The notes under the pieces: generated by a model
Database searches by the model: none
The model's input: only the letters and a program-made list of their open reading frames with translations
Told to the model about the DNA's origin: nothing
Assembly: GCA_022496805.1 (NCBI GenBank)
Contig: CM040102.1
Location: forward strand, 22,259,955-22,323,954
Direction: 5' to 3'
Origin: Pohlia nutans
Taxonomy: Eukaryota; Streptophyta; Bryopsida; Bryales; Mniaceae
Length of the DNA: 64,000 bases
Shown: positions 6,736 to 56,391 of the stretch, in pieces
How positions within the stretch are numbered: the stretch's first letter is position 1
How the letters are laid out: every line of letters starts with the position of its first letter
Translations under genes and position numbers: made by a program

Positions 6736-7012
6736 GATGTAAAGACATAATCAAAACTCTCCGCTCATCACGGTCACATTACTATTATGCGCCGCCTCTC
6801 TGCTAGCGCAATGTAAATACATTATTACAACCCTCCGCTTACCACCGTCACATTACTGTTATGCGCCGCCTCTAATGACACAATGTAAATACATTATTCC
6901 AACCTTCCGCTCACCACACTCACATTATTGTTATTTGCTGCCTCTACTGGCGGGATGTAAAGACATCATCATATCCTTCCGCACATCACGCTCACAATAC
7001 AATAGTACTCCA
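6736..7012. repeat. Tandem repeat, about 73-bp unit, four copies
   Basis: Units start near 6736, 6810, 6882 and 6954, each with a TGTAAATACATTATT-like segment followed by CTCCGCTCACCAC and GCGCCGCCTCT. The fourth unit is the most diverged. Confidence 0.75.
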
Positions 7013-9136: not shown

Positions 9137-9738
9137 GCAAGGTAGATTGAAGACAAGCCTCCTTCTATATATCAGTAAAGGGTCCTGGAAAGTTGGAAAA
9201 CTACCGATGTCATATTGAAATGAATAAACTCAAGATTTTGGTTTCAATTCCTATAGACACTGATGATTCTCGAGACTTGGGTTCTTGTCTTCTAGCGGCT
9301 TTCAACGGCTCAATCCACACATAGAAGCTTGTTCTGAGATGTCTGCAAAGCAAAGTAGATTGAGGGCTTCCTTCCATATATCGGTAAGGGGTGTTGGAAA
9401 GTTGGAAAACTACGGATGCCATATTGAAATGAATAAATCCAAGAGTTCAGTTTCAATCCTTGCAGACACCGATGATTTTTGAGACTTGAATTCTTGTCTT
9501 CTAGTGGCTTTTACCAGCCCAATCCTCACACGGAAACCTGCCCTCATATGTGTGCAAAGCAAGGTAGATTGAGGGCCTCCTTCCATATATTGGTAAAGGG
9601 TTCTGGAAAGATGGAAAGCTATGGATGCTATACTGGAATGAATAAACAAAAGAGTTTGATTTCAATTCTTGCAGACTCCGATGATTATCGAGACTTGAAT
9701 TCTTGACTTCAAACAACTTTCACCAGGCCAATCCTCAC
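9137..9738. repeat. Tandem repeat, about 210-bp unit, nearly three copies
   Basis: Units begin with GCAAGGTAGATTGA near 9137, 9350 and 9559 (spacing 213 and 209). Each continues through TATCGGTAAGGG and GATGATT-CGAGACTT. The third is interrupted by the CACTA-like pair at 9738-10122 and resumes near 10123. A related single unit lies at 22399-22512, upstream of the third gene copy. Overlapping opposite-strand open frames here are repeat artefacts. Confidence 0.8.
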
Positions 9739-10122
9739 ACTAGTAGGAAATGTGTTGTTTTTCACTTACTATAAATGAAAAAAGGAATGAAACCGCGCCA
9801 AGCACATGGGGTTGTGTTAGTGTTGGTGAGTGGTTTTGGTCACAAGAAAAAAATATAAGTACAATATTTAGTCACTATTCACTGCTCCCACAAAGTGAGG
9901 AATGAAAACTACAAATCTGCTACTATCACTAGTAGCAGATTTGTCGTTTTTCATTCCCCACTTTGTGGTAACAGTGAAACAATGGCGGAATATTGTGATT
10001 ATATTTCTGTCTTCTTGTGACCAAAAGCACTCACCAGTATGGACACAACGCATGTGCTAGGCATAGTTTTATTCCTTTTTCATTTATAGTAAGTGAAAAA
10101 AACGACGCATTCCCTACTAGTG
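9738..10122. mobile_element. CACTA-like MITE pair in inverted arrangement
   Basis: Two ~190-bp copies of one MITE face each other, meeting near 9926. Outer ends are CACTAGTAGGAAATGTG and CCCTACTAGTG, with the motif TCATTTATAGTAAGTG near one end of each copy. The whole forms a 385-bp inverted repeat inserted in the third ~210-bp repeat unit. Single copies are at 18682, 20211 and 20481. Confidence 0.75.
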
Positions 10123-24057: not shown

Positions 24058-24600
24058 GGAGAGAGACGATTTGTCGATTTCACATTTCGGAATCACACGA
24101 GTTGCTTTTCGCAACCCTGTAGTAAAGGTTTTCCAATCAAGTAGAGAGGTTGTTTCACATTTGGGAATTACATGAGTTGCTTTTCGCAACTACCGGCAAG
24201 GGTTTTCTAATCAAGTAGAGAGGTGATTTCTCATTTGGGAATTGAAGTGCCAGCCACACGATTCGGTTTGGATACTACTGGACCATCACCTTGGTAGTTT
24301 AGGGTTATATCATACCATCCTCATTTCTCTTTTGGAACAATATCCCCTTCATTGTCCTCATTTTGTTGGAGAATATGTGGCTGCATAGATCTAAATTTTT
24401 TCATAGAGTAAATCGGCAAAGGTTTTCAATCAAGTAGAGAGGTGATTCCACATTCAGGAATTGAAGTGCTATCCACACCATTCGGTTTGGATACTTCTCA
24501 ACCATCACCTTGGTAGTTTAGGGTTATATCAGACCATCCTCATTTCTCTTTTGGAACAATATCCCCTTCATTGTCCTCATTTTGTTAATGAGTATTTGGA
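23880..24600. repeat. Degenerate tandem array downstream of gene copy 3
   Basis: Blocks with GAATTGCTTTTCACAACC, CAAGTAGAGAG and CATTCGGTTTGGATAC repeat as at 12300-13320. A block containing ACCATCCTCATTTCTCTTTT and TCCCCTTCATTGTCC occurs twice (about 24310 and 24530) and once at 13340. Confidence 0.65.
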
Positions 24601-24654
24601 TGCATAGATTTAAATTTGTTCTTAGAGTAAATTTTAATCTACATTGTTTGCTTT

Positions 24655-35135: not shown

Positions 35136-35375
35136 TCACCCTAACCATTGCTTACCGTAGCATCTTCTCGTCTAGCATAAATTTAATATCTTATGATTCT
35201 TTAGCAAGCATTTGAACCTCAATCTCTCGTTAAGTTTAAAATCCTTAAGATTGCCTTAAGTTGGTTATTACACACGAAGAATGGTGCTTGGCATGATAGG
35301 GCAATCCACCGTACAAACGTTTCCAAATTCCAACGGCTGCTCACAAAGTACTGATTGCAAGCTGTAGTGTAATCT

Positions 35376-35646
35376 TGGGGGGTGGGACTCTTCATTATAT
35401 TTGAGAATCACGTGCGTTCATGACCCCTTCTAAAACCCCTTGTATACGAGAGGTTATATGTCTAAACACCTTTGCATACAGATGTATTCCGTTTTAAATA
35501 TATGTTTATTGTAAGTATAAGTGAATATTTTCAGTTCTAAATGTGTTTATTGTATGTATACGTAATACGGCACTGTTCAAATTAATTAATACCCCTTCTG
35601 TGCACTCACGTATACTAGTACATGTTTAGTACAGTGCACCCCCCAG
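35376..35646. mobile_element. Mutator-like MITE, family F copy 3
   Basis: Ends TGGGGGGTGGGACT and CAGTGCACCCCCCAG, with flanks AGTGTAATCT (35366-35375) and AGTGTAATAT (35647-35656), a 9-10 bp duplication. At the site of the nested insertion in copy 1 this copy has uninterrupted CAAATTAATTAATACC. Confidence 0.8.
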
Positions 35647-35649
35647 AGT

Positions 35650-36400
35650 GTAATATAAATGTTTTGGAGCTGATTCTCTTTCTTAAGTTGAGGAAGCAAT
35701 GACCTCGTGAGTTGTCTATTTCATTTGCTGTCATCTTTCCAGATACTGAAGAGGTCGGGGGGAAAGATCTAAGGCAAACATATTCGACATACCCGTCGTT
35801 CTAATTTTTTTTTAGACGGCGATTGATATTCTCTACAGAACACGCCGACTCTGTCTCCTCTGTAGCACCTGCTCTGTCCTTGTGGATTGATCAGAGTGGA
35901 GCTAACTGGTTTAAGAGAGGAGCTAACTGATTTAGGAGACGAGCTTTGATTCACACTTCAATCAAGGCTCGACCAGGAAGCTAGTTTAACAGAATTGCAA
36001 CGAGTAAGTCGGTCATGGCCAAGACGAGAATCCCGCGTAAGTTTCCGACCAGAGCCAAAGAAAGTTTTATCGCAGCTGCCGGGGCAGAAGGAACTGAAAG
36101 ATGAAGAGGAGAGCTCCAAAGAAATTCTGCCTGAAAAATGGGTCGGAAAATGAAAAGAATTAATCTCTTTCCGAATCAGCACCCAAGATACCGTAGTCTA
36201 CGGTGATGCTTAAGCGCGAGTGAGCTATGCTGCGAAGGCCAGAGTTGTGGGTTGTCTTCGTTTTTCCACACTCCTGTTGCAGGGAATTCAAAGCGTTTCC
36301 CTCTTGATCCTCACGGGAGAATCATATAGACCCAGGCTAGTGGACTTGGCCACATTTTATCGTGCCACTGCGTCGCTCATCGATGCTCTTCCTCTTCTGT
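35650..36400. other. GC-richer stretch without a recognised gene
   Basis: Short frames on both strands (35769-35954, 35958-36182, 36220-36435) show no recognisable domain. GGAGCTAACTG is repeated near 35898 and 35922. The segment may be part of a duplicated leader together with 36410-36737. Confidence 0.4.
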
Positions 36401-36409
36401 TCTTTGGCT

Positions 36410-36737
36410 TCTTCTTTAGGGTTTCACCTCACTAGCGCCATCGAACCCCTGTAATTCTTATGTCATGTGAGTATCTCTGGCTCTGGAGTCTTATGAATGC
36501 TGCTCTTGTCTGCACTTAGTAGCCTTCTTCCCACAGCATCTCAGCGTATGCTTCTGAGGTTTCTTTGTGTGTTTCGAGGTCCTAGGTCACGAGCGAGAGC
36601 TTTCTATTCAAGCAAGTACAAGTCGGAGCTTTTCCGAGCTTTTCGGTACTGGGATCACGATGATTTGTAGCCGAATGTTGGACTTTATCTAAGGTGTGTG
36701 AGTTCGATCATCTGGCCGACGGAAATCGGCGCAGTGA
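36410..36737 (+). repeat. Leader-like direct repeat, copy 2
   Basis: Second copy of the segment at 34853-35135, about 1.1 kb upstream of the TIR exon. Both copies are in the orientation of the receptor gene. Confidence 0.75.
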
Positions 36738-37155
36738 AAATTTTGGGTCGTGCAACACAAGAATTTTCCATTAGATATTTACTCTTTGATTCCCATGTTG
36801 TGCTTCAGTCTCGTGTGAGTGTTGGTAGGACTGACAAAATAACTTCCTTGCATCTGAATGTGCTCTAGAGTCTGAACTGTAGATGCATTGCTCCAGCGTC
36901 ATATTATATTCTTTCCTTTCTCTTGTTATTCTACCTGGAAAATCGCCTCCAATTTGTTCCAAACATAAGAACAAGTAAATCTGCCACTAAGGTTGTGATT
37001 TTGTTTCATCAGGACTTGACAGCTGTATCCAATCTTAAGACTAGTGGAGTCCCAATAACGTTGGTAGCCAAGTGCCCTTGAAGGCTGGAATCATGGGCGA
37101 GGCTCAAAGTGCAACAATAATAGCCAATGTGGTGCCGGTAAGGGTCATCTACTAC

Positions 37156-37245
37156 TTGGATGGAACAATTCAGTTCGTTGCATAATGCAAAAAATGTGTG
37201 TTGGATGGTACAATTCAGTTTGTTGCATGATGGAAAAAATGTGTG
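37156..37245 (+). repeat. 45-bp tandem duplication
   Basis: Two 45-bp units starting TTGGATGG at 37156 and 37201 differ at a few bases. The length is a multiple of three, but no frame here is convincingly coding. It lies in the leader region of the receptor gene. Confidence 0.85.
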
Positions 37246-37823
37246 AAGAATTTGACTTGCATGAGCGTTGGATGTTACGCAGTTGGTTTCTGGTGCAGTC
37301 AATTTGCTGCAGCGGCCGCCCCAAAAGCATAATGGTGCACTGCATAGATGGATGGTTGCAGTACCGGCGGATAGTACTAGCACTTCACAGACGTTGGATG
37401 TAGTACCCGAGGAAGACAGCTGCTCTTTACAATGGTTGGTTTGCTCCACCACCTACCCATTCTCTAGCATTTGCTCGGAAGTAGGCGGTTGAAGGAATGA
37501 ATCGATTTACTTCTCAAGTTATAAAATAATCTTCAGAGCATTTCTTCAAAATGAACAAATTAATCTCATGTGAATTCATAGCAAAATGTATGATGTCTCG
37601 TTTACCATGTATGTTAATCAGTATGCTCATACGTTCAGGGCATCCTATCTCATATAGTATCCACTAAGATTACTCTAAAAATCAAGCTCTTGCTACATGT
37701 GAATAAACATAGTTTTGTACGGAGTGTTATATATTGGGATTCACAAAACTCTGCTGATCACATGTATTCCTAGGAGGTATTACTGAATATAATTACTATT
37801 CGCAACATTTTGTTGTTGTGTAG

Positions 37824-38400
37824 GAATGATGACTTTCACTCTATTTTTCTCAGTCACAGTGGTGCACAAAAGAGCTTTGTGGAGCAACTATGTGTGGATA
37901 TTGAAAGATATGATAGATATCCATTTTTTGACAAACGTCGGGACAGTTTGCCAATTGGATGTCATTTCCCAAAAGTGATCTTCGATGCAATAGAGAAATG
38001 TCGAGTAGGTGTGGTGGTGTTGTCAGAGGAATTCTTTTCACGGTCGAAGTGGCCAATGTTAGAGTTGGTTGCTATGATGAAGAGGCGGACTCATGATCCA
38101 AAGTTCATAATCATGCCCGTCTTTTTGCACATCAAACGTGCAGAATGTCGGAACAAAGTGAACCATAATCAATGGTTGACACAACATTGGCAAGGTTGGG
38201 CCAAGGAAGATAATAAAATAGACCTGAAGAAATGGCAAGAGGCTCTTGAAGTGTTTGGGCCTATCAATGGAGTTTGTCTCAATGATAAATTAGATGAAGT
38301 GAAGTGTCGAGGGGAGGTTGTGGAGGCTCTTTGTAAAGAAGTTCCTCCAAGAACAAGGTGGGATGATTCTCATGTACAAGGAAGATCACGCATGTGTTCG
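37824..38400 (+). CDS. TIR exon of the receptor
   Basis: Begins after TTGTGTAG and ends at TCG|GTAAGA. The TIR signature FHSIFLSHSGAQKSFV is followed by FFDKRRDSLPIG, VVVLSEEFFSRSKW and PMLELVAMM. The Glu codon at 38062-38064 aligns with the catalytic Glu of NAD-cleaving TIR domains (SARM1, RPP1), so the enzymatic residue is kept. After the TIR the exon runs through EVFGPINGVCLND and EVPPRTRWDDSHVQGRSRM, the usual linker to NB-ARC. The opposite-strand frame at 37850-38056 is a shadow. Confidence 0.85.
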
Positions 38401-41400
38401 GTAAGATTTTCTTGTTTATTTATATTTCATAATAATTGAAAACCTGAGCAATAAATTTGATTTGGAGTATAGCAACTACGATGCTCATGGTTTAGTGGAC
38501 ATGTTTGAGTATGACAGGCTATTCGCGGGAAGATTGATGGGTTACAATTGTCAAAGAGTTATGGAGTTCGGATATTGGGAGTGTATGGGGTGGTGGTATT
38601 GGAAAGACCACTGCTTGCAAGGTTGTTTGTAATGATTATTTTAAGGAGTTTGAGGGGAGAGTATGTCACATCGAGTTTGGGATTGGAAGCAAGTTGTTTA
38701 GGTTGCAAGAGATTTTGAGGAGACTCACAAGAACTGAAGAAGAGCTTGTAAAGAACTTCTGTGAAGATGAGGTTTGATAACATTCTTTTGAGCTCAAGTT
38801 TCTCTCTAAACCTCAAATTCTACAAGAGATAGAATGATAACTAAGAGCCTTCTTTTATGAAGAATGATTTACATGCTAAGAAGTATATTGACTATAGTCA
38901 TGAATAGTGCATAATTGTAAATAGGATATTGGTTTTGACTAGGGGTTATGTTGTGTATGCAGTGTAAAGATAGATTGAAACGCAGTTTGAAGAGAAAGGT
39001 ATTGTTGGCAATCGACAATGTTTCAGATGCACAATATATAGTGAATGAAGGGATGGATATTTTAAGAGTGAGATTCCCAAAAGGAAGCATTGTGATAGTG
39101 ACAGCTCGGTCACAATCCCAGTTAGGATATCTCAAAATTTCATCGGAAGAGTGTATTGAAATGCCCAATTTGGAAGAGGATGATGCAAGGTCATTATTTC
39201 TATATCATGCTGCACCTGGCTCCTATTTGAAGAATGCAGACAAGGCAAATGAGCTTGTCTTGAAGAAATGTATCCAACGGTGTTATTTTGGTAAAGGAGA
39301 TGGGATAAGTTATCACTATCATCCATTGGCATTGCAGACATTAGGTGGGCAATTTGGGAATGATCCAGAGGCATGGAATGAGAACTTGAATGAAGATGAT
39401 GTTTTCAACCGATATCAGGAAGACAATAAAGACCATCCAATATATTCCATCTTGGGAATAAGTTTTGAGAAATTGAGACTTGAAGACAAATATTTATTTA
39501 TTGATGCTACCATTTTTGCTCCACATGGATGTATCATGAATACCATTGATTGGTTTAGTATGGTTCATGGGAGAAGTGTCTCTGATATCAAGAGAAGGGT
39601 ATGGATGACATAATGAACTATTGTATATTTCCCCATTTATTGAGCTCTTCTTTACATAGATATTTAAAAGGTGTATACAAAGGTAGTTTAGGGTTTATGA
39701 TTTAATGTTGTAATTTGGCAAATGTTCTATACATTGTTTATTGCAAATTATACTTTGTTGGAGTACATACTTGAGCCAATTTGTGGATTTGTTTTACTCT
39801 GCAGCTTGAAGGATTGAAGAATAAATCGCTTCTAGAGAACTTGGATGAAGGAAGTGGAATGATACGCGTTCATGATCTATGGCGTGGATTTGCTGCAATG
39901 AAAGTTGAAGTGGCAGAATTTGAATTGCGACCTTGGGTGTTTGAGAAGGCTTATGCTCCACGAAGAGCAGAATCTTGCCTTTCTGGGGGTGGTTGGGAAA
40001 GCTTGCAAAGAGTATACATCATCACTGGTATATGGAATGGACCCTATGGTATTGTGAAGCAGTTAAACTTGAGTCAGTGCTCGAACTTGGGAGTATTGAA
40101 GCTGCAGTGTGTGGAGATTGAGTCTGGGGTGTTGGATGTGAGGTCACTATTGCAATTGAAGAGTTTGCAATTATCCTGTATTATTGGTCCAAAATGTTTT
40201 GGAGGAGTGCTTCAAATTCTTGGACTTAAGAGCTTGACGAATCTAGTTTACCTTGATCTAAAGATCCCAACGACAAAAGCGACTTTTGTTCATGAAGAGA
40301 TTTGGAGTTTGACAAATTTGCGAGTTTATGTAGCAGAAGGATTTCAATGCAAGTTTGGGGTGCCAAATATTGTGACTTTGGAGAAACGTGAAGCGGAATA
40401 TGCACGATTACTACAGCTTCAAATATTGGACCTATATGAGCTAGCATTATTGGAGCTTCTTGATTTAAGTAGTTTCCCGCAATTGAGGAAACTTGTTATT
40501 CACTTTTGTCACAAATTGACAGAGTTGACTAGTATTGCCCCCTTGATTGCTTTGGAACACATTGAATTCTATAAGTGCAAGAATTTGAAAACAATACCAA
40601 ACTTGAATCACTTTGTGGCTCTGCAACATTTCAAATTGTTTTGGTTGCCAAGTCTGCAAGTTTTGGTAGCTCCTAGATACAAGTTTGAGATTCCTGATTT
40701 AATCCCTTCAGAGAAACTTCATGGAGAATTTGTATATTTTCCGCAGCTTCAAACTTTGGACATGTATCAGGTAGCAATTCTAGAGCTTCCTGAGTTGAAT
40801 AATTTCCCCAAATTGAGAAAACTTTCTATTTCAAAATGCAATATGATGATAGGGTTGATGAGTAGCACACCTTTGACTGCTTTGAAAGACCTTGACATCT
40901 CAGATTGCAAGAGTTTTAATGTTCTACCGCACATGAATCACTTTGTTGCTCTTAACTATCTTAGAGTGTGGGATTGCGGAGAAGTGCAATTGACAACACA
41001 TGATATTGAGCTGCTTGAAGCAATGTGCGATGGGTTGCAAATTCTTTTTATGAGGAGTTCTAACAGTACATCTGTTCGATCGGAGGGAACTTCTAGGATG
41101 ATGTTAGAGAAGATGCCATATGAGGAGCACGTGGAAGAGGAGCCATTGCATTTGAACACAAATAATTGCAGCGAGATTCTTGTGTCATCAACGGATAAAC
41201 TCACGATTAGGTACACAGGAGATGGTGAATCATGTGGTTCCATTCAAGCTAATTGTCCTGCACCGCGGTGTTCAGGCATTTACTACTTTGAGCTGACAGT
41301 AAAGGACCTGGGCAAAGATGGTTGCATTGGTATAGGATATACAAACGAGAATTTCTTATCTTCGTCGATGCCGGGATGGGAGTATAATGGCTATGGCTAC

Positions 41401-41685
41401 CACGGCAATAATGGCATGCTTTATTGTGAGCAGGGCAAAGGCAAGCCATATGCAGAAGGGTTTACAACAAGCGATACGGTGGGTGCTGCAATCAATTTTG
41501 TGGCGCAGGAGATCTTCTTCACCCGAAATGGAAAAGTCCTTCCCGTTGTTTCTTTCGTAGATGGGAAGAGTCCGTACTACCCAACCATTAGTTTGGGCAG
41601 TCCTATGGAGAAAGTGGAGGTCAATTTTGGTACGAGGAAGTTTGTATTTGATTTTGAAAGTGTTTTTAGAAGAGCAAGGTCATAG
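37824..41685 (+). CDS. TIR-NBS-LRR immune receptor with C-terminal SPRY domain
   Basis: Four visible exons, 37824-38400, 38518-38771, 38963-39598 and 39805-41685, are joined by phase-0 GT-AG introns. Together they encode about 1,120 residues: TIR, NB-ARC, LRR and a RanBPM-type SPRY domain. Plant TNLs sense pathogen effectors in the cell; the TIR domain cleaves NAD+ on activation and the NB-ARC acts as an ATP/ADP switch. Seen here are the TIR Glu (PMLELV), kinase-2-like VLLAIDNV, PLAL and an MHD-like VHDLW. The start is unresolved: the first exon begins at an acceptor (TTGTGTAG), and an upstream frame near 37268-37480 (QLVSGAVNLLQ) could be an earlier exon, but its phase does not fit a simple join. 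One base is missing in the P-loop exon, so this copy should not make a full receptor unless the base is an assembly error. The downstream exons are otherwise open, which argues for recent loss. Confidence 0.85.
38518..38771 (+). CDS. P-loop exon of NB-ARC, one base missing
   Basis: Between GACAG|GCT and GAG|GTTTGA. The first frame reads AIRGKIDGLQLSKSYGVRIL and GVYG. The continuation GGIGKTTACKVVCNDYF is only found one base over, so a G is missing in the GGGGTGGTGG stretch at 38586-38596. Both exon ends are phase 0, yet the length is 254 nt, one short of 255, which confirms a single-base loss. It falls in the Walker A motif needed for nucleotide binding. After the shift the exon continues normally (FEGRVCHIEFGIGSKLF, then LRRLTRTEEEL). 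Confidence 0.75.
38963..39598 (+). CDS. NB-ARC second exon (kinase 2 to ARC2)
   Basis: Starts after GTATGCAG and ends at AGAAGG|GTATGG; 636 nt, open throughout. It shows kinase-2-like KRKVLLAIDNV, RNBS-B-like GSIVIVTARSQSQL in place of the usual TTRD, and PLALQTLGG corresponding to the GLPLAL motif. The next Asp after kinase-2 DN is not present (IDNVSD). The ARC2 part follows with YSILGISFEKLRLEDKYLF and DATIFAPHG. Confidence 0.85.
39805..41685 (+). CDS. LRR and SPRY exon of the receptor
   Basis: Starts after CTCTGCAG with LEGLKNKSLLENLDEG and MIRVHDLWRGFA (MHD-like), ending at TAG. Leucine-rich repeats span about 40050-41000. An ~85-residue LRR block is duplicated (LLQLQILDLYELALLELLDL near 40405 and FPQLQTLDMYQVAILELPEL near 40740, each ending NHFVAL). 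After a linker of about 65 residues comes a SPRY domain (about 41205-41665): GIYYFELTVKDLGKDG, PGWEYNGYGYHGNNG, PYAEGFTTSDTVGAAINF, IFFTRNGKVL, YPTISLGSPMEKVEVNFG and FVFDFE. These match RanBPM/RanBP9-type SPRY blocks in order. The LisH/CTLH parts of RanBPM are absent. No intron separates LRR from SPRY, so the fusion is in one open frame. Confidence 0.9.
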   Translation, partial: LEGLKNKSLLENLDEGSGMIRVHDLWRGFAAMKVEVAEFELRPWVFEKAYAPRRAESCLSGGGWESLQRVYIITGIWNGPYGIVKQLNLSQCSNLGVLKLQCVEIESGVLDVRSLLQLKSLQLSCIIGPKCFGGVLQILGLKSLTNLVYLDLKIPTTKATFVHEEIWSLTNLRVYVAEGFQCKFGVPNIVTLEKREAEYARLLQLQILDLYELALLELLDLSSFPQLRKLVIHFCHKLTELTSIAPLIALEHIEFYKCKNLKTIPNLNHFVALQHFKLFWLPSLQVLVAPRYKFEIPDLIPSEKLHGEFVYFPQLQTLDMYQVAILELPELNNFPKLRKLSISKCNMMIGLMSSTPLTALKDLDISDCKSFNVLPHMNHFVALNYLRVWDCGEVQLTTHDIELLEAMCDGLQILFMRSSNSTSVRSEGTSRMMLEKMPYEEHVEEEPLHLNTNNCSEILVSSTDKLTIRYTGDGESCGSIQANCPAPRCSGIYYFELTVKDLGKDGCIGIGYTNENFLSSSMPGWEYNGYGYHGNNGMLYCEQGKGKPYAEGFTTSDTVGAAINFVAQEIFFTRNGKVLPVVSFVDGKSPYYPTISLGSPMEKVEVNFGTRKFVFDFESVFRRARS

Positions 41686-44301: not shown

Positions 44302-45385
44302 GTGCAAGGATGATGTTGTCCTGGTACGAACAGAATTGCTCATCTTGTCTTTGTGTAGGGATTAATTGGTTTGCTATTGCTAGGATAGACGTGAATTTCG
44401 TCCAGCGTGATCTATTGTAAAAGTTATGAGAAGTGTCCATGTAAGGATTATGGCAAGTGAATTATATTATGGGTATCTTGTTACAGGGAGTCGAGAAATT
44501 AATCTCCAGACCTCCAAAATGTTGCTAGAGGGCTCCAACCGCAGAATCCATGCTGTAGACCGGTATGCTGGCATGGCAAGTTCTCCAATGGTCTAATATT
44601 CGTTAGGATATTCGTCTTTAATATCTACACAGTTTCGGTGCCAAGGCCACTCCATAGTGCATTTTTCATAAAAATGCACAAAGAGTAAATCACATTCTGT
44701 ATGAGGGTGATGCCATATTGTATTTACAGGTTGTTAATGAGGTGTCTGGGCTATGCTTATGTGCAGGTAATGGCAGGTTTAGCATCTGATGGTAGGATGA
44801 TAGTTACGAGAGCTCGCAGTGAAACCTCAAATTACTGAAGGTATTTTGCCATTTGTTAACCTTAATTGTCCCGGGACTCCCTCATGATGTATATACAGGG
44901 GTTTCCGATTAGAAATTAATCAAAATTTGAGGATCAAAAACTTTGTGGACACTTTATATGCGGATGAAGGTACTATCAAAGAATCACCTGACCAAATGCT
45001 GAGTGTCTCTAACCTCTCTGATGTGGATCGCAACTTTTATGTTGAGGAGGTACTCATTGGAGAGTTGTGTGATCGTGTTGCACATTATGCTCATCTGTGC
45101 ACGCTTTATTGGTGGCTTAGGTACTCACTTTTACATCAATTGTGTGGCATATTTAATACACAGATGTATACACTGTATGGTCTTTGCAATTACAGAATTA
45201 TATTTGGGATTTGGCTGATGGAGTATCTGTTTTGGAATGATCTATGGCTGGTGCATGAGTTGTGTTCAAGCTGTGTTGTGGTTATATATTTGTTCTTCAG
45301 ACCTTTTGGATCTTCAACAATCCTTGGAGGTTATGATCGTGATGGTCCTCAACTCTACATGATTGAGCCCTCCGGTGTTGCCTAC
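44302..45385 (+). pseudogene. 20S proteasome alpha-7 (PAG1/PSMA3) fragment with introns
   Basis: Exon remnants at 44302-44323 (CKDDVVL), 44487-44579 (GVEKLIS, then SNRRIHAVDRYAGMA one base over), 44767-44840 (VMAGLASDGRMIVTRARSET), about 44990-45120 (DRVAHYAHLCTLYWWLR) and 45301-45385 (PFGSSTILGGYDRDGPQLYM, then IEPSGVAY) follow the order of the proteasome alpha type-3/PAG1 subunit. The join WLR|PFG keeps phase. Frameshifts in the second and third remnants (the latter giving a stop after TNY-like SNY) and loss of both ends show it is dead. A continuous 252-codon frame at 44927-45685 is an intron read-through artefact. Confidence 0.8.
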
Positions 45386-45489
45386 GTAAGGCTCTTAATG
45401 GCTCTATATTTCGAATGTATCATTATCTTCATGAAGGCTAGTGGCTTGTTTGGTGGTCTGATGTTAAGTGAACTCATGTCTTCTATAAC

Positions 45490-45685
45490 ATTCCATTATA
45501 AATTTGCAAACGTTTTGCAACAACCAGACGATTCATCAAGCGAAGTGTTTGCATTAGCATATACAACTGACATTGCATATAAAATAAATCTCGAAACATC
45601 AATATACAATATTTCTGATATGAGACAACATCTAAGAGACTACATCACACAATCAAAAATAATACCATTCCAAAACAAAATATAA
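45490..45685 (+). pseudogene. C48/Ulp1-like peptidase tail remnant
   Basis: The frame reads VLQQPDDSSSEVFALAYTTD and IYNISDMRQHLRDYITQSKI before a stop at 45683. This resembles the C-terminal part of C48 (Ulp1-like) cysteine peptidases carried by several plant and animal transposons, where QQ.D..DCGVFALAY holds the catalytic Cys. Here the Cys-Gly is replaced by Ser-Glu, so activity would be lost. It is fused in frame to the proteasome fragment's intron by chance. Confidence 0.5.
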
Positions 45686-52642: not shown

Positions 52643-54193
52643 TTAATAAGCATCTATGTCATTCTGCAAGCGTATGTTGTCCATTTCCTCCAGTTGTAGC
52701 GCTATATACTCTATCATATGAGGTTTAGCATGAATTGGAATGCGGATCCTTGTTTCCGTCATGACGCCATGGATCGGAATATTATAGCTTGATTCAGATG
52801 TAGTCCTTGTTCTTATTGGAACATCATCCCATGCAAATATAGCTGCTTCTTTATCAACCCAACCATGTCTTTCACCAGACGGCTCCCAAGTTGCTTCCAT
52901 GCAGTTTGCATATCGTTCTCTGTTTGAACCCTGTAGCCTTTGCATTCCTACCCGCATGATGGGCCAATACCACAAAACCTTCATCTTCAAGGCCCGCGAG
53001 CGTTGTCCAAACTCTAGTACCTTGCCCACGTAGAATGGTACTCCAGCTTGTACCTCACTGTGTTCTACGGTCAGCGCCACAAATTGTCCCACTTTGATGT
53101 CACTAGTTGGATCAAACGGTGGAAAAGGATCCTCCGTCCTAGAAGTGTGCATCCTTGTTGATGTTTGGCCTACTCCAACATCTCGGTTCTGGTTTGGCGT
53201 TCTTCTCACAGACACCGTTGATGGCCTCCCTCTGCGAGGACCAAAGTAACCTCGGCCTTCCGGATCACGCATTCTTGATAAAATTAAATCTGTTGATCTA
53301 ATTATCGCGTTCAAATTTTGTCCGCTCTGAAGCAGTTCCTCCGGTTGTGCGTTTTCAATTACGCTCTCTCTTCCTTCGCTTGGCCAGAACGGTATGGATC
53401 TCTCTTCCCTTCTATCTTTTGTGGGAAATTCTATAAGATACTGCATCAGCCACTTTGCCTCATCGATGGCTCGCAGGTTCTTTTCTACATACTGTAATCT
53501 ACTTACACACCTCTCCTTATACGCAATAAACTCTTGCAATGCCCTGAACTCCCTGTCATCTGCTGCGAATACTTCTGCTAATTCAGGCGTCTGCGAAGTA
53601 CTCGGCAACGAACGTAAACACATGTGCCCATCGACCGGACCCCATGCGTCTCCACTGAAGTGTTTGTGTTGTACTCGGGGCATGCCGTTCTCCATATAGA
53701 ACCTCATGTGGTGTGGGAATGTGATGCCCGTCAATGTATCGCCGCCCGTTTGGAGATGAGGAGTAATGAATGACTTCCAGTCCCAAACATTTTCCAGATG
53801 TCGTGCACTCACGAAGGCCTCCGTATATGACGTTCCTTTCTCCACCAGTTGTAGCAGCTCTTGCAACGAGTCAATGTTTGTTCTCTTCACTGTATTTGAT
53901 ATTATACTGAAACGCTGATCGATGTCTTCGTGTGTGTGACCCGCTATCAAAAAGCACAACTGCACTTCTTGAAAGATTCCTAACCCAACTAGAGAAGCAC
54001 AAAGGGCAAACATGTACACATTCTTGTTCTCTCGCGTGCAGTTATCCGCTTGAATTCGCAAAGTAGGAGGTACTCTACCCTTTCTGCGCTTCACATCGTT
54101 GATGACGTGCATGACCGTAGTGACTACTTGGTTGCTGTCGTGTTTGTGGTGTGCGTCTATCCACATCCGCATACAATCCAATCCTGTGGACAA
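52643..54193 (-). CDS. DUF7869-type protein, C-terminal part
   Basis: Codes for the second half of a transposase-like protein. It continues the frame of 54075-55853 after a one-base shift near 54184. Motifs: KHDSNQVVTTVMHVIND, LRIQADNCTRENKNVYMFAL and CFLIAGHTHEDIDQRFS. The two acidic motifs plus VDGMDQ in the first half look like a DDE/D triad of an RNase H-like fold. The C-terminal ~200 residues (GQFVALTVEHSEVQAG, PFYVGKVLEF, KVLWYW) suggest a small SH3/BAH-like module. No signal or membrane segment. Opposite-strand frames are shadows. Confidence 0.7.
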   Translation of the reverse strand: MSTGLDCMRMWIDAHHKHDSNQVVTTVMHVINDVKRRKGRVPPTLRIQADNCTRENKNVYMFALCASLVGLGIFQEVQLCFLIAGHTHEDIDQRFSIISNTVKRTNIDSLQELLQLVEKGTSYTEAFVSARHLENVWDWKSFITPHLQTGGDTLTGITFPHHMRFYMENGMPRVQHKHFSGDAWGPVDGHMCLRSLPSTSQTPELAEVFAADDREFRALQEFIAYKERCVSRLQYVEKNLRAIDEAKWLMQYLIEFPTKDRREERSIPFWPSEGRESVIENAQPEELLQSGQNLNAIIRSTDLILSRMRDPEGRGYFGPRRGRPSTVSVRRTPNQNRDVGVGQTSTRMHTSRTEDPFPPFDPTSDIKVGQFVALTVEHSEVQAGVPFYVGKVLEFGQRSRALKMKVLWYWPIMRVGMQRLQGSNRERYANCMEATWEPSGERHGWVDKEAAIFAWDDVPIRTRTTSESSYNIPIHGVMTETRIRIPIHAKPHMIEYIALQLEEMDNIRLQNDIDAY

Positions 54194-55853
54194 GCACCCC
54201 GCACAAATGAGTTTTCACAAACCGTGACTCTATGTTCTTCACTGTTTGCCTCATTTTAGGAACCATAGTAGTGTTTTGGTCCATACCGTCTACAATGATA
54301 GACATGTATACGTCTGGGGTTATGATCGCTGACCTCTTGAACGTCCAATAGTCTCGTCTCTCTTCCATTTGACGATGAATGTGCACCATGTACAACTTCT
54401 TTATCTCCACTTTCGCAGCTGCATTGGTGGTTGCCTCCATTCCGCACTTATACTCCCAACAGTGGTAGCATTTGGCAAACCTAGAGAACGGCGGGATTTG
54501 TACGTGAGGATATTCAGTCCGCCACATCCTATAAAATGACGAGAGCGATATCGGATTCCCATCCACCATCTTCTTTACTTCCTCGTTCACGTAGTGGAAA
54601 ACATCCAACTTTGTTGTATTCATAGGGAGTAACACCAATGGCACAACAACGTTATCAATCTTCTTCCGTATCTGTCGATTTGGTTGCGTGCAGCCTGCCT
54701 CTTTCACGAACTCCTGAAAGCTTTCACGTGCTGCCGACATCTGTGCACGCTCTCTTAGTTTGCATGTGTTCCCGTACACAGCTGCAACTTTTCCATACAC
54801 TTGATGAGACATTTTCAATTGTTTGAAACGCCTTTGAGAGTATCCTAATGCGGTTGCATAGCAGGCGTTGCACACGGCGACTCCATCCAATTTTGTGTTG
54901 TACTTGTCCTTCCTAACCCCCTGTGTACGAGAGTAAAATGCGTTCAACATTTGCAACATCCATGTTGCCCGTTCATTGAATTTTTGACCCCATGCCAGGT
55001 AGCGCTGATCAAGAATATATTTCTCACTAACTTCCTTCAAACAATTCTTCTTGCAACCACCTTTTCCCTTCGCTGCTGCAACGCTGTTCAAAGTCACCTT
55101 CTGACTTCGTGCCTCCCTCCTATCTCGAAGGGGTTGCTCGTGCCTCCTTCGATTCGGCATGGAATACTTTCTTCTTGGTCTTTCAACTGGCAACCCCTCT
55201 ATACATGTCATGTTGTCTAGGCTACACTGCGGTTCTTGCGTTGCAGGGGATACGCCGTCTCGTGAACTAGACTGCAAGGGAGTGTTTGGAGAATCATCTG
55301 ATGGATTCAGTGATATGTCTTCTTCATGGAATTCGTACTGAGGTGCTACTACAGTGTGGAAGGAAAAATTTTGACCTTCTCCAGATTCTACAGAAGTAGC
55401 GATGACCGGCTCTGCGGCTCGGATGTGTGCTCTTTCCCATCGTATGACAAATCCAAGACATTGTTGTAATTGTTCTCCAATGAGCTCCCCCGTCCACGCT
55501 GTACCATCAACAACATGTACAACCTTAACAACAACCTCAGAAGGACATAATTTCACGGCATGAAGTTCCATCCCGCATTTGATATTCTCATCTATCACCC
55601 CTTTTCCAACGATGTTTCCTCCAATCCCTAACAGTTCCACTGTGCCCGTCTGTGGTGTTTTTGCTCTTGGATGTACCGATGTATTTGCATCGTCAAATAG
55701 TCTAGCAGTACAAGCTCGGTAAATTCTTTGTCCTACAGTCAGTGACGGAGTTGCATTGTTGGCGGCATTTGCGTTCACCACAGGACTTCCAAATGCTCCA
55801 TTGTTCATTGCTTCCCTCATTTTTGAGAATGATATTCCTTCCCACCTGCACAT
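54075..55853 (-). CDS. DUF7869-type protein, N-terminal part
   Basis: A frame of 592 codons from ATG at 55853; GTATGTGCAG just at the start could instead be an intron acceptor. The first ~270 residues are low in recognisable domains. Then come Cys pairs that could bind zinc (CKKNC, VCNACY, CYHCWEYKC), ISLSSFYRMWRTEYPHV and the acidic motif IIVDGMDQNTTMVPKM, followed by THLCGVLVH where the frame is lost. The last ~35 codons are a frameshift tail. GVLVHG followed by KHDSN is the order expected in DUF7869 proteins, so one inserted base near 54184 explains the break. The joined protein would be about 1,070 residues. The family is widespread in seed-free plants, algae and animals and appears to be transposon-borne; it is not piggyBac. 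Confidence 0.7.
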   Translation of the reverse strand: MCRWEGISFSKMREAMNNGAFGSPVVNANAANNATPSLTVGQRIYRACTARLFDDANTSVHPRAKTPQTGTVELLGIGGNIVGKGVIDENIKCGMELHAVKLCPSEVVVKVVHVVDGTAWTGELIGEQLQQCLGFVIRWERAHIRAAEPVIATSVESGEGQNFSFHTVVAPQYEFHEEDISLNPSDDSPNTPLQSSSRDGVSPATQEPQCSLDNMTCIEGLPVERPRRKYSMPNRRRHEQPLRDRREARSQKVTLNSVAAAKGKGGCKKNCLKEVSEKYILDQRYLAWGQKFNERATWMLQMLNAFYSRTQGVRKDKYNTKLDGVAVCNACYATALGYSQRRFKQLKMSHQVYGKVAAVYGNTCKLRERAQMSAARESFQEFVKEAGCTQPNRQIRKKIDNVVVPLVLLPMNTTKLDVFHYVNEEVKKMVDGNPISLSSFYRMWRTEYPHVQIPPFSRFAKCYHCWEYKCGMEATTNAAAKVEIKKLYMVHIHRQMEERRDYWTFKRSAIITPDVYMSIIVDGMDQNTTMVPKMRQTVKNIESRFVKTHLCGVLVHRIGLYADVDRRTPQTRQQPSSHYGHARHQRCEAQKG

Positions 55854-56391
55854 ACAGAAGAGTGTCTTAGAAAAATTACTATAACCACACTAAAATCAAT
55901 ATATACGCTAGCCCACCATATTTACAATAGGTTGTACCAATAATTATTTTTCAAAAATATTGTGATAAAATTCATCCAAATTGGATGAAAATTTGTTACA
56001 ATAGATGAATGTACCCACGGTATATTATGATTTCACTGTACCAATTCGTAAGACATGTCTAAACATTACTATTAACATGGACAAATCCTATGTACCATGA
56101 CTTGATGTTCACAACTATTTTATTCAATTCTTCAAATATATACATTGAAGAATTTCATTTTATGTGGTAGTAGTGAACAAAATACAATGCCTGTCTACTT
56201 GGCTTTATGCACTTCTTCACAATAATGCATATCAATTACAAAGTGTTCCAAACAACTCAAATTTTTTATTTTCAAAAATAACATTATTTCCCTGTCAAAA
56301 TTATTTAAAAGTCATTCTATTGGTTCAAAAAGCTTCTCACTATGTATAATTATTTTAAATGAAATATGATAATGTACTTACAAACACCGTA

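What the first reader, a model, noticed from the sequence alone, without database searches (positions are those of the whole stretch)
37824..41685. TIR-NBS-LRR receptor with an integrated RanBPM-type SPRY domain
The last exon runs in one open frame from LRRs into a clear SPRY domain (GWEYNGYGYHGNNG, FTTSDTVGAAINF, FFTRNG, NFG). Fish NLR-B30.2 receptors independently place B30.2/SPRY after LRRs, and cyst-nematode SPRYSEC effectors carry RanBPM-like SPRY domains. A plant TNL with SPRY at the C terminus could be an integrated decoy or a convergent ligand-binding end.
Basis: partly seen in the sequence, partly recalled or inferred. Interest (0 to 1): 0.88.

Follow-up and report, generated by a model that had tools for sequence, protein, structure and literature searches.

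The report
Moss immune receptor carrying RanBPM domain
A moss gene for an intracellular immune receptor has, fused to its end, a piece copied from a moss housekeeping protein called RanBPM, probably serving as bait for pathogen proteins, although this particular copy carries a frame break and may be inactive.

Summary
Exon 5 (39805-41685) is one open frame from the MHD region through LRRs into a SPRY domain (64.9 bits against a cut-off of 26.3). Exons upstream encode TIR and NB-ARC. An independent Logan protein, P0001, has the same LRR-SPRY exon at 56% identity, so the fusion is no assembly accident.

The SPRY and its lead-in derive from moss RanBPM (62-64% identity); the CTLH half is missing. 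The window and P0001 SPRYs form one clade (99/98), which points to one capture. 0 of 59 close relatives carry SPRY.

Caveats: a frame change at 38592 breaks the P-loop, no ATG exon was found, and this copy changes faster than P0001 in LRR and SPRY. It may be a young pseudogene or hold a sequence error.

Best reading: an NLR with a RanBPM-derived integrated bait, a new domain type in a known kind of architecture. The bait role is inferred. The nematode SPRYSEC link is unnecessary.

The parts
37824..38400 (+). exon with TIR domain (Pfam TIR 37837-38340); donor GTAAG at 38401; catalytic-type Glu at 38062-38064 in SKWPMLEL
   Evidence: Pfam E 5.7e-16; Glu column aligned with L6 and RUN1; that it is the catalytic residue is recalled knowledge
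38401..38517 (+). intron; acceptor GACAG just before 38518
   Evidence: relatives read RSRLC-KVIREKI straight across; window reads RSRMCS|AIRGKI
38518..38771 (+). exon with first part of NB-ARC (P-loop GVYGV / GGIGKTT)
   Evidence: tblastn with P0013, P0014; NB-ARC profile on joined exons
38578..38612 (+). P-loop, interrupted by a frame change at base 38592
   Evidence: P0013 and P0014 alignments pass from frame +1 to +3 at 38592
38963..39598 (+). exon with rest of NB-ARC: kinase-2 KVLLAIDNV (38996-39022), GLPL-like YHPLAL; donor GTATGG at 39599 (motif names recalled)
   Evidence: 52% identity to P0013
39805..41685 (+). last exon, one open frame: MHD-like VHD (39868-39876), LRRs, linker, SPRY, stop
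41131..41679 (+). RanBPM-derived segment (VEEEPLHLNTNNCS... to end of SPRY); Pfam SPRY core 41281-41634
   Evidence: alignment to P0001 and moss RanBPM P0010-P0012; Pfam

Best explanation
A moss TIR-NB-ARC-LRR receptor gene captured the front half of the plant's own RanBPM gene (lead-in stretch plus SPRY) and fused it in frame behind its LRRs. It lacks the LisH-CTLH-CRA half that builds the CTLH/GID E3 ligase. The capture most likely happened once, before the window's lineage and the source of P0001 split. The SPRY most likely acts as an integrated bait: a pathogen effector (or another ligand) that binds RanBPM's SPRY binds this copy instead, the receptor opens and oligomerises, and the TIR NADase signals. 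Shown: architecture, in-frame fusion, its occurrence in a second sequence, homology to RanBPM, and absence of the CTLH half. Inferred: direction and number of captures, the bait role, the effector and the activation. The window copy itself may be inactive because of the P-loop frame break.
For: Architecture: Pfam and PDB. Same exon in P0001, LRR through SPRY, 56% identity over 428 aligned residues; LRR 60%, SPRY 72%. RanBPM homology: P0010 (Ceratodon; SPRY + CTLH), P0011 and P0012 match at 62-64%, with the lead-in read as VEEEPTHLNTN in P0010 and P0012. Single capture: NLR-SPRY clade 99/98; 15 shared residues that differ from all three RanBPMs, and two shared indels. Some other moss TNLs have other domains after the LRRs: ZZ in P0013, WD40-type repeats in P0030/P0033/P0041 (4 of the 7 rows scanned). 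Bait logic is argued for NLR-IDs (PMC4759884, PMC5067614, passages). RanBP9's SPRY carries most of its partner binding (PMC9180843, passage).
Against: No effector or binding partner is known, and no expression data were available. The P-loop is frame-broken at 38592 and no start exon was identified. The window copy is accelerated relative to P0001 in both SPRY (20 vs 6 changes, p=0.009) and LRR (40 vs 23, p=0.04), which fits decay as well as an arms race. The fusion rests on two sequences. The tree has seven rows, is rooted only at the midpoint, supports the RanBPM group weakly (73/65) and flags the window as a long branch, so nesting of the NLR-SPRYs inside RanBPM is not shown.
Confidence: 0.6

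Rival explanations
1. The window copy is a recently dead member of a living TNL-SPRY family. The P-loop frame change would end translation before the LRRs and SPRY. This rival can be true together with the best explanation, which then applies to the family and not to this copy.
For: Frame change inside the P-loop; no ATG exon found; faster change than P0001, including 11 vs 1 changes at SPRY sites on which five outgroup rows agree (three RanBPM and the two SPRYs of P0009; p=0.006).
Against: No stop in 1115 codons; under neutral decay of 0.02 changes per site about 3.6 stops are expected (P of none 0.03). The three introns inside 37824-41685 have GT-AG ends. A single sequencing error would look the same.
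Confidence: 0.45
2. The SPRY is a direct ligand-binding end in its own right, like the B30.2 end of fish NLRs or the post-LRR C-JID of flowering-plant TNLs, and no longer mimics RanBPM.
For: Same post-LRR position. In the Pfam column, C-JID (PF20160) is listed for three angiosperm rows (P0081, P0082, P0091) and for 0 of the 59 rows P0013-P0071. The NLR-SPRYs share changes away from RanBPM.
Against: The SPRY still reads clearly as RanBPM (62-64%), and the core YGYHG and TT.D motifs are kept.
Confidence: 0.2
3. The SPRY tethers the receptor to CTLH-complex partners, for turnover or localisation, and does not sense pathogens.
For: In yeast Gid1 the SPRY contributes to the surface that binds Gid5 (PMC9180843, passage).
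Against: The LisH, CTLH and CRA modules are absent; the NLR-SPRY branches are longer than those of RanBPM.
Confidence: 0.12
4. Chimera: two genes or a misassembly joined at the LRR/SPRY border.
For: None found.
Against: One open frame across the border, and the same junction in P0001 at 56% identity.
Confidence: 0.02

Closest known systems
Plant NLRs with integrated domains (RRS1-WRKY, Pik-1 and RGA5 with HMA)
   Same: An NLR core with an extra domain that is a copy of a host protein part; mosses are known to have such NLR-IDs (PMC11218826, PMC5067614, passages; RRS1 in PMC9528084, passages; Pik-1 and RGA5 from abstracts listed)
   Different: The SPRY is RanBPM-derived. The term SPRY does not occur in the main texts of seven works searched: five NLR surveys, a 305-genome angiosperm landscape and a review. 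Their supplements were not read.
RanBPM / RanBP9 (CTLH/GID E3 ligase subunit)
   Same: SPRY and lead-in peptide homologous, 62-64% to moss RanBPM
   Different: LisH, CTLH and CRA absent; TIR-NB-ARC-LRR in front
Teleost NLR-B30.2 receptors
   Same: NTPase and LRR followed by a C-terminal SPRY-class domain (listing and abstracts; passages)
   Different: NACHT-type animal NLRs with PRY-SPRY (recalled); independent origin (inference)
Sordariales fungal NLRs with C-terminal SPRY
   Same: SPRY as the last domain of an NLR; 46 such NLRs reported (PMC12258605, passages)
   Different: Always with ankyrin repeats there; here LRRs and a TIR
Post-LRR C-JID of flowering-plant TNLs (RPP1, Roq1)
   Same: A domain at the same place after the LRRs that takes part in recognition (recalled; RPP1 LRR-ID structure 7crb listed)
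   Different: Different family (PF20160); listed for 0 of rows P0013-P0071
Cyst-nematode SPRYSEC effectors
   Same: RanBPM-like SPRY (PMC5071358, passages)
   Different: Secreted parasite proteins; much weaker match (E 2e-15)

Membership tests
TIR-NB-ARC-LRR receptor | TIR domain | tested here: met
   PF01582 59.3 bits vs 21.3
TIR-NB-ARC-LRR receptor | NB-ARC domain | tested here: met
   PF00931 54.0 bits vs 23.5 on joined exons with X at the frame break; single pieces gave no match
TIR-NB-ARC-LRR receptor | intact P-loop in one frame | tested here: not met
   frame change at 38592; a P-loop pattern is present in 57 of 59 relatives
TIR-NB-ARC-LRR receptor | LRRs after NB-ARC | tested here: met
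   on the last exon PF25019 30.9 bits vs 27 and PF23952 32.0 vs 27.9; on the long joined protein 27.3 and 27.7, the second just under its cut-off; many LRR blocks at pLDDT 80-91
NLR with integrated domain | extra domain homologous to a host protein, in the same reading frame | tested here: met
   (same frame as the LRRs; the NB-ARC upstream is frame-broken)
NLR with integrated domain | fusion present in an independent sequence | tested here: met
   P0001 shows LRR-SPRY; its TIR and NB-ARC lie outside the protein held
NLR with integrated domain | extra domain required for recognition of an effector | not testable with these tools
   needs experiment
RanBPM | SPRY plus LisH-CTLH-CRA | tested here: not met
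   only SPRY and its lead-in align; the frame stops at 41685
SPRY domain | PF00622 above gathering score | tested here: met
   64.9 bits vs 26.3
SPRY domain | RanBP9-like fold | tested here: inconclusive
   best PDB matches are RanBP10/RanBP9 SPRY, E 1.7e-10, TM about 0.5, but model mean pLDDT is only 57.1

The most novel reading that the evidence does not exclude
RanBPM's SPRY (CTLH/GID E3 ligase) is a pathogen target in mosses, and a lineage of moss TNLs turned it into a fused sensor. SPRY would then have become a C-terminal NLR sensor independently in animals, fungi and plants.
Probability: 0.4. Interest if true: 0.75.

Novelty: new variant of a known kind. Interest (0 to 1): 0.52.

Why it matters
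Integrated domains point to the host proteins that pathogens attack. A RanBPM bait would name the CTLH/GID ubiquitin ligase as such a target in mosses; PMC11218826 notes that direct evidence for NLR-mediated immunity outside flowering plants is still lacking (passage). It would also add a plant case to the SPRY-ended NLRs of fish and fungi. Some moss TNLs carry other post-LRR domains (ZZ, WD40-type), which gives a tractable set for testing bait capture outside flowering plants.

Tried and rejected
First gene model: I placed exon 3 at 38468 and inferred two frame breaks. Relatives showed that 38468-38517 is intron and that one break, at 38592, remains.

Nematode origin of the SPRY: rejected, because moss RanBPM is far closer. 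Assembly chimera: rejected (P0001). First exon: eight ATG exons with the right phase and a donor score of 7 of 9 were listed in 35300-37780; judged by eye none resembled the relatives, so none was adopted. WD40 of P0030/P0033/P0041: it looks like TOPLESS from memory, but the PDB search gave general WD40 proteins only among the 60 of 183 shown, so this stays a recalled lead. NCBIfam matches to XopL and others are generic LRR similarity far below cut-off. A scan of prokaryote contigs found no relative. The structure of the last exon is good only in the LRRs (mean pLDDT 60.3).

A phmmer control used an out-of-frame query and found nothing, not even its positives. It was corrected, where the 5 known SPRY proteins were found and 0 of 59 relatives.

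Papers listed but not opened include PMC9048904, PMC12915092 and nine of the eleven.
Full report
WHAT IS THERE. The finding's last exon is real. In window frame +1 the stretch 39775-41682 is open for 636 codons; the exon proper starts at 39805 after an AG and has 626 codons. It holds the end of the NB-ARC (MHD-like VHD), LRRs and a C-terminal SPRY domain with 64.9 bits against a Pfam cut-off of 26.3. The best solved relatives are RanBP9 and RanBP10 (E 7.1e-39 and 2.3e-38).

GENE MODEL. Moss TNLs found were aligned back to the window. They give TIR exon 37824-38400, intron 38401-38517, NB-ARC exons 38518-38771 and 38963-39598, and last exon 39805-41685. The three introns between these exons lie between codons and have GT-AG ends. 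TIR scores 59.3 bits against 21.3; NB-ARC scores 54.0 against 23.5 on the corrected joined model. LRR models pass their cut-offs narrowly, and one of them falls just under on the longer joined protein. The glutamate in SKWPMLEL lines up with that of flax L6 and grape RUN1; that this is the NADase residue is recalled knowledge.

DEFECTS. Relatives P0013 and P0014 align in frame +1 up to base 38592 and in frame +3 from there, in the middle of the P-loop. A P-loop pattern is found in 57 of 59 related proteins (P0065 and P0071 lack it). Before the TIR there is no in-frame ATG; none of eight candidate first exons in 35300-37780 was convincing by eye. So the window copy is either a young pseudogene or carries a sequence error. 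Against old decay: 1115 codons hold no stop, and neutral change of 0.02 per site would leave none with probability 0.03. For relaxed constraint: compared with P0001, the window has 20 against 6 private changes in the SPRY (p=0.009), and 11 against 1 at sites on which three RanBPM rows and both SPRYs of P0009 agree (p=0.006). In the LRRs it has 40 against 23 (P0002 as outgroup, p=0.04), with p between 0.007 and 0.04 over five overlapping outgroup choices. The LRR figures depend on an alignment of repeats with indels.

INDEPENDENT COPY. P0001, a 544-aa protein predicted from a 2661-base Logan contig with no organism given, has the same LRR-linker-SPRY exon (E 3.2e-196; 56% identity over 428 aligned residues). 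LRR identity is 60.3% over 302 positions and SPRY identity 71.6%. The window has more repeat sequence than P0001 (626 against 544 aa). This excludes a local misassembly as the source of the fusion. P0001 does not show its TIR or NB-ARC.

WHERE THE SPRY COMES FROM. The SPRY-only search returned five proteins among 227 candidates. They are P0001; P0009 (two tandem SPRYs, no other Pfam domain); and P0010 (Ceratodon purpureus), P0011 and P0012, which carry SPRY plus CTLH and are RanBPM by architecture. Identity of the window SPRY to the three RanBPMs is 61.6-63.8%. The similarity starts about 50 residues ahead of the Pfam core, at VEEEP.HLNTN, and ends where RanBPM goes on towards its CTLH half. 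In a seven-row tree the window and P0001 SPRYs form one clade (99/98), on longer branches than RanBPM (stem 0.27, P0001 0.11, window 0.41, against 0.03-0.07 for RanBPM rows). They share 15 residues that differ from all three RanBPMs, 6 of them at sites where both SPRYs of P0009 agree with RanBPM; they also share a three-residue gap and a one-residue insertion. One capture followed by fast change explains this best. The tree is small, rooted at the midpoint only, supports the RanBPM group weakly (73/65), and flags the window as a long branch.

DISTRIBUTION. Of 89 proteins, rows P0013-P0071 (59) are the close relatives: 55 named Ceratodon purpureus, 2 Physcomitrium patens, 1 'Gb_01384' and 1 unnamed; most are full TNLs, some partial. 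None of the 59 has a SPRY by phmmer, while all five known SPRY proteins are found in the same test. Seven of the 59 were scanned with Pfam by me: P0013 has a ZZ finger after the LRRs (25.2 bits against 21.4); P0030, P0033 and P0041 have WD40-type propeller matches there, above cut-off only in P0041, with P0033's piece matching a WD-40 structure at E 1e-36. The search scored the 7990 candidates sharing most words only, and needs exact shared words, so distant TNL-SPRYs could have been missed.

HOW IT PROBABLY WORKS. Plant NLR-IDs are held to carry copies of effector targets (PMC4759884 and PMC5067614, passages). RanBP9's SPRY mediates most of its partner contacts (PMC9180843, passage), and Arabidopsis RanBPM sits in CTLH-type complexes (PMC3464593, passages). 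The receptor has the binding part without the assembly part, as a bait would. Binding would release the NB-ARC and let the TIRs assemble; that step is general TNL knowledge and was not tested here. Structure prediction added little: LRR good, SPRY poor, although RanBP10/RanBP9 SPRYs are the top PDB matches.

WHAT IS KNOWN. SPRY does not occur in the main texts of PMC4759884, PMC5067614, PMC11218826, PMC7145615, PMC11126693, PMC12787737 and PMC9528084 (term searches); supplements were not read. Library searches for SPRY with NB-ARC and bryophyte, and for SPRY domain with NLR and gymnosperm, gave 0 papers. SPRY with TIR-NBS-LRR and integrated domain gave 3; in the two opened, SPRY stands for nematode SPRYSEC effectors (passages). 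The 11 papers with NB-ARC, SPRY domain and plant (two of them opened elsewhere, the rest seen as titles and abstract starts) show no plant NLR-SPRY fusion that I could see. PMC11218826 reports many NLR-IDs in Ceratodon and Sphagnum, so a SPRY case may sit in its data. Fungal NLRs with a C-terminal SPRY number 46 in one survey (PMC12258605), and fish have NLR-B30.2.

VERDICT. A TNL-type gene with a RanBPM-derived SPRY, in a plant whose named closest relatives are mosses (species unknown), is confirmed as architecture. The bait role is likely but untested. The window copy itself may be dead. It is a new domain type within the known NLR-ID kind, as far as the texts searched show.

Noticed in passing
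window 44888-45682 +: Open stretch with a proteasome-subunit match (PF00227, E 1.8e-7), perhaps exons of a proteasome alpha-type gene (type recalled) downstream of the receptor.
   Followed up: no
window 52646-55889 -: Two long overlapping ORFs (523 and 604 aa), the first with DUF7869 (E 3.3e-48); looks like a transposon-type gene (inference).
   Followed up: no
P0030, P0033, P0041 (Ceratodon TNLs): WD40-type propeller after the LRRs (above cut-off only in P0041); from memory it resembles the TOPLESS co-repressor, which would be another host-derived bait. Not confirmed.
   Followed up: partly
P0013 (Ceratodon TNL): ZZ zinc finger after the LRRs (E 1.4e-5) in the best-scoring full-length relative of the window gene.
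   Followed up: partly
P0009 (ENA, 384 aa): Two tandem RanBPM-like SPRY domains 89% alike, no CTLH; source organism unknown.
   Followed up: partly
window 9157-9740, 24194-24632, 6737-7000: Tandem repeat arrays with units of 209, 219 and 72 bases.
   Followed up: no
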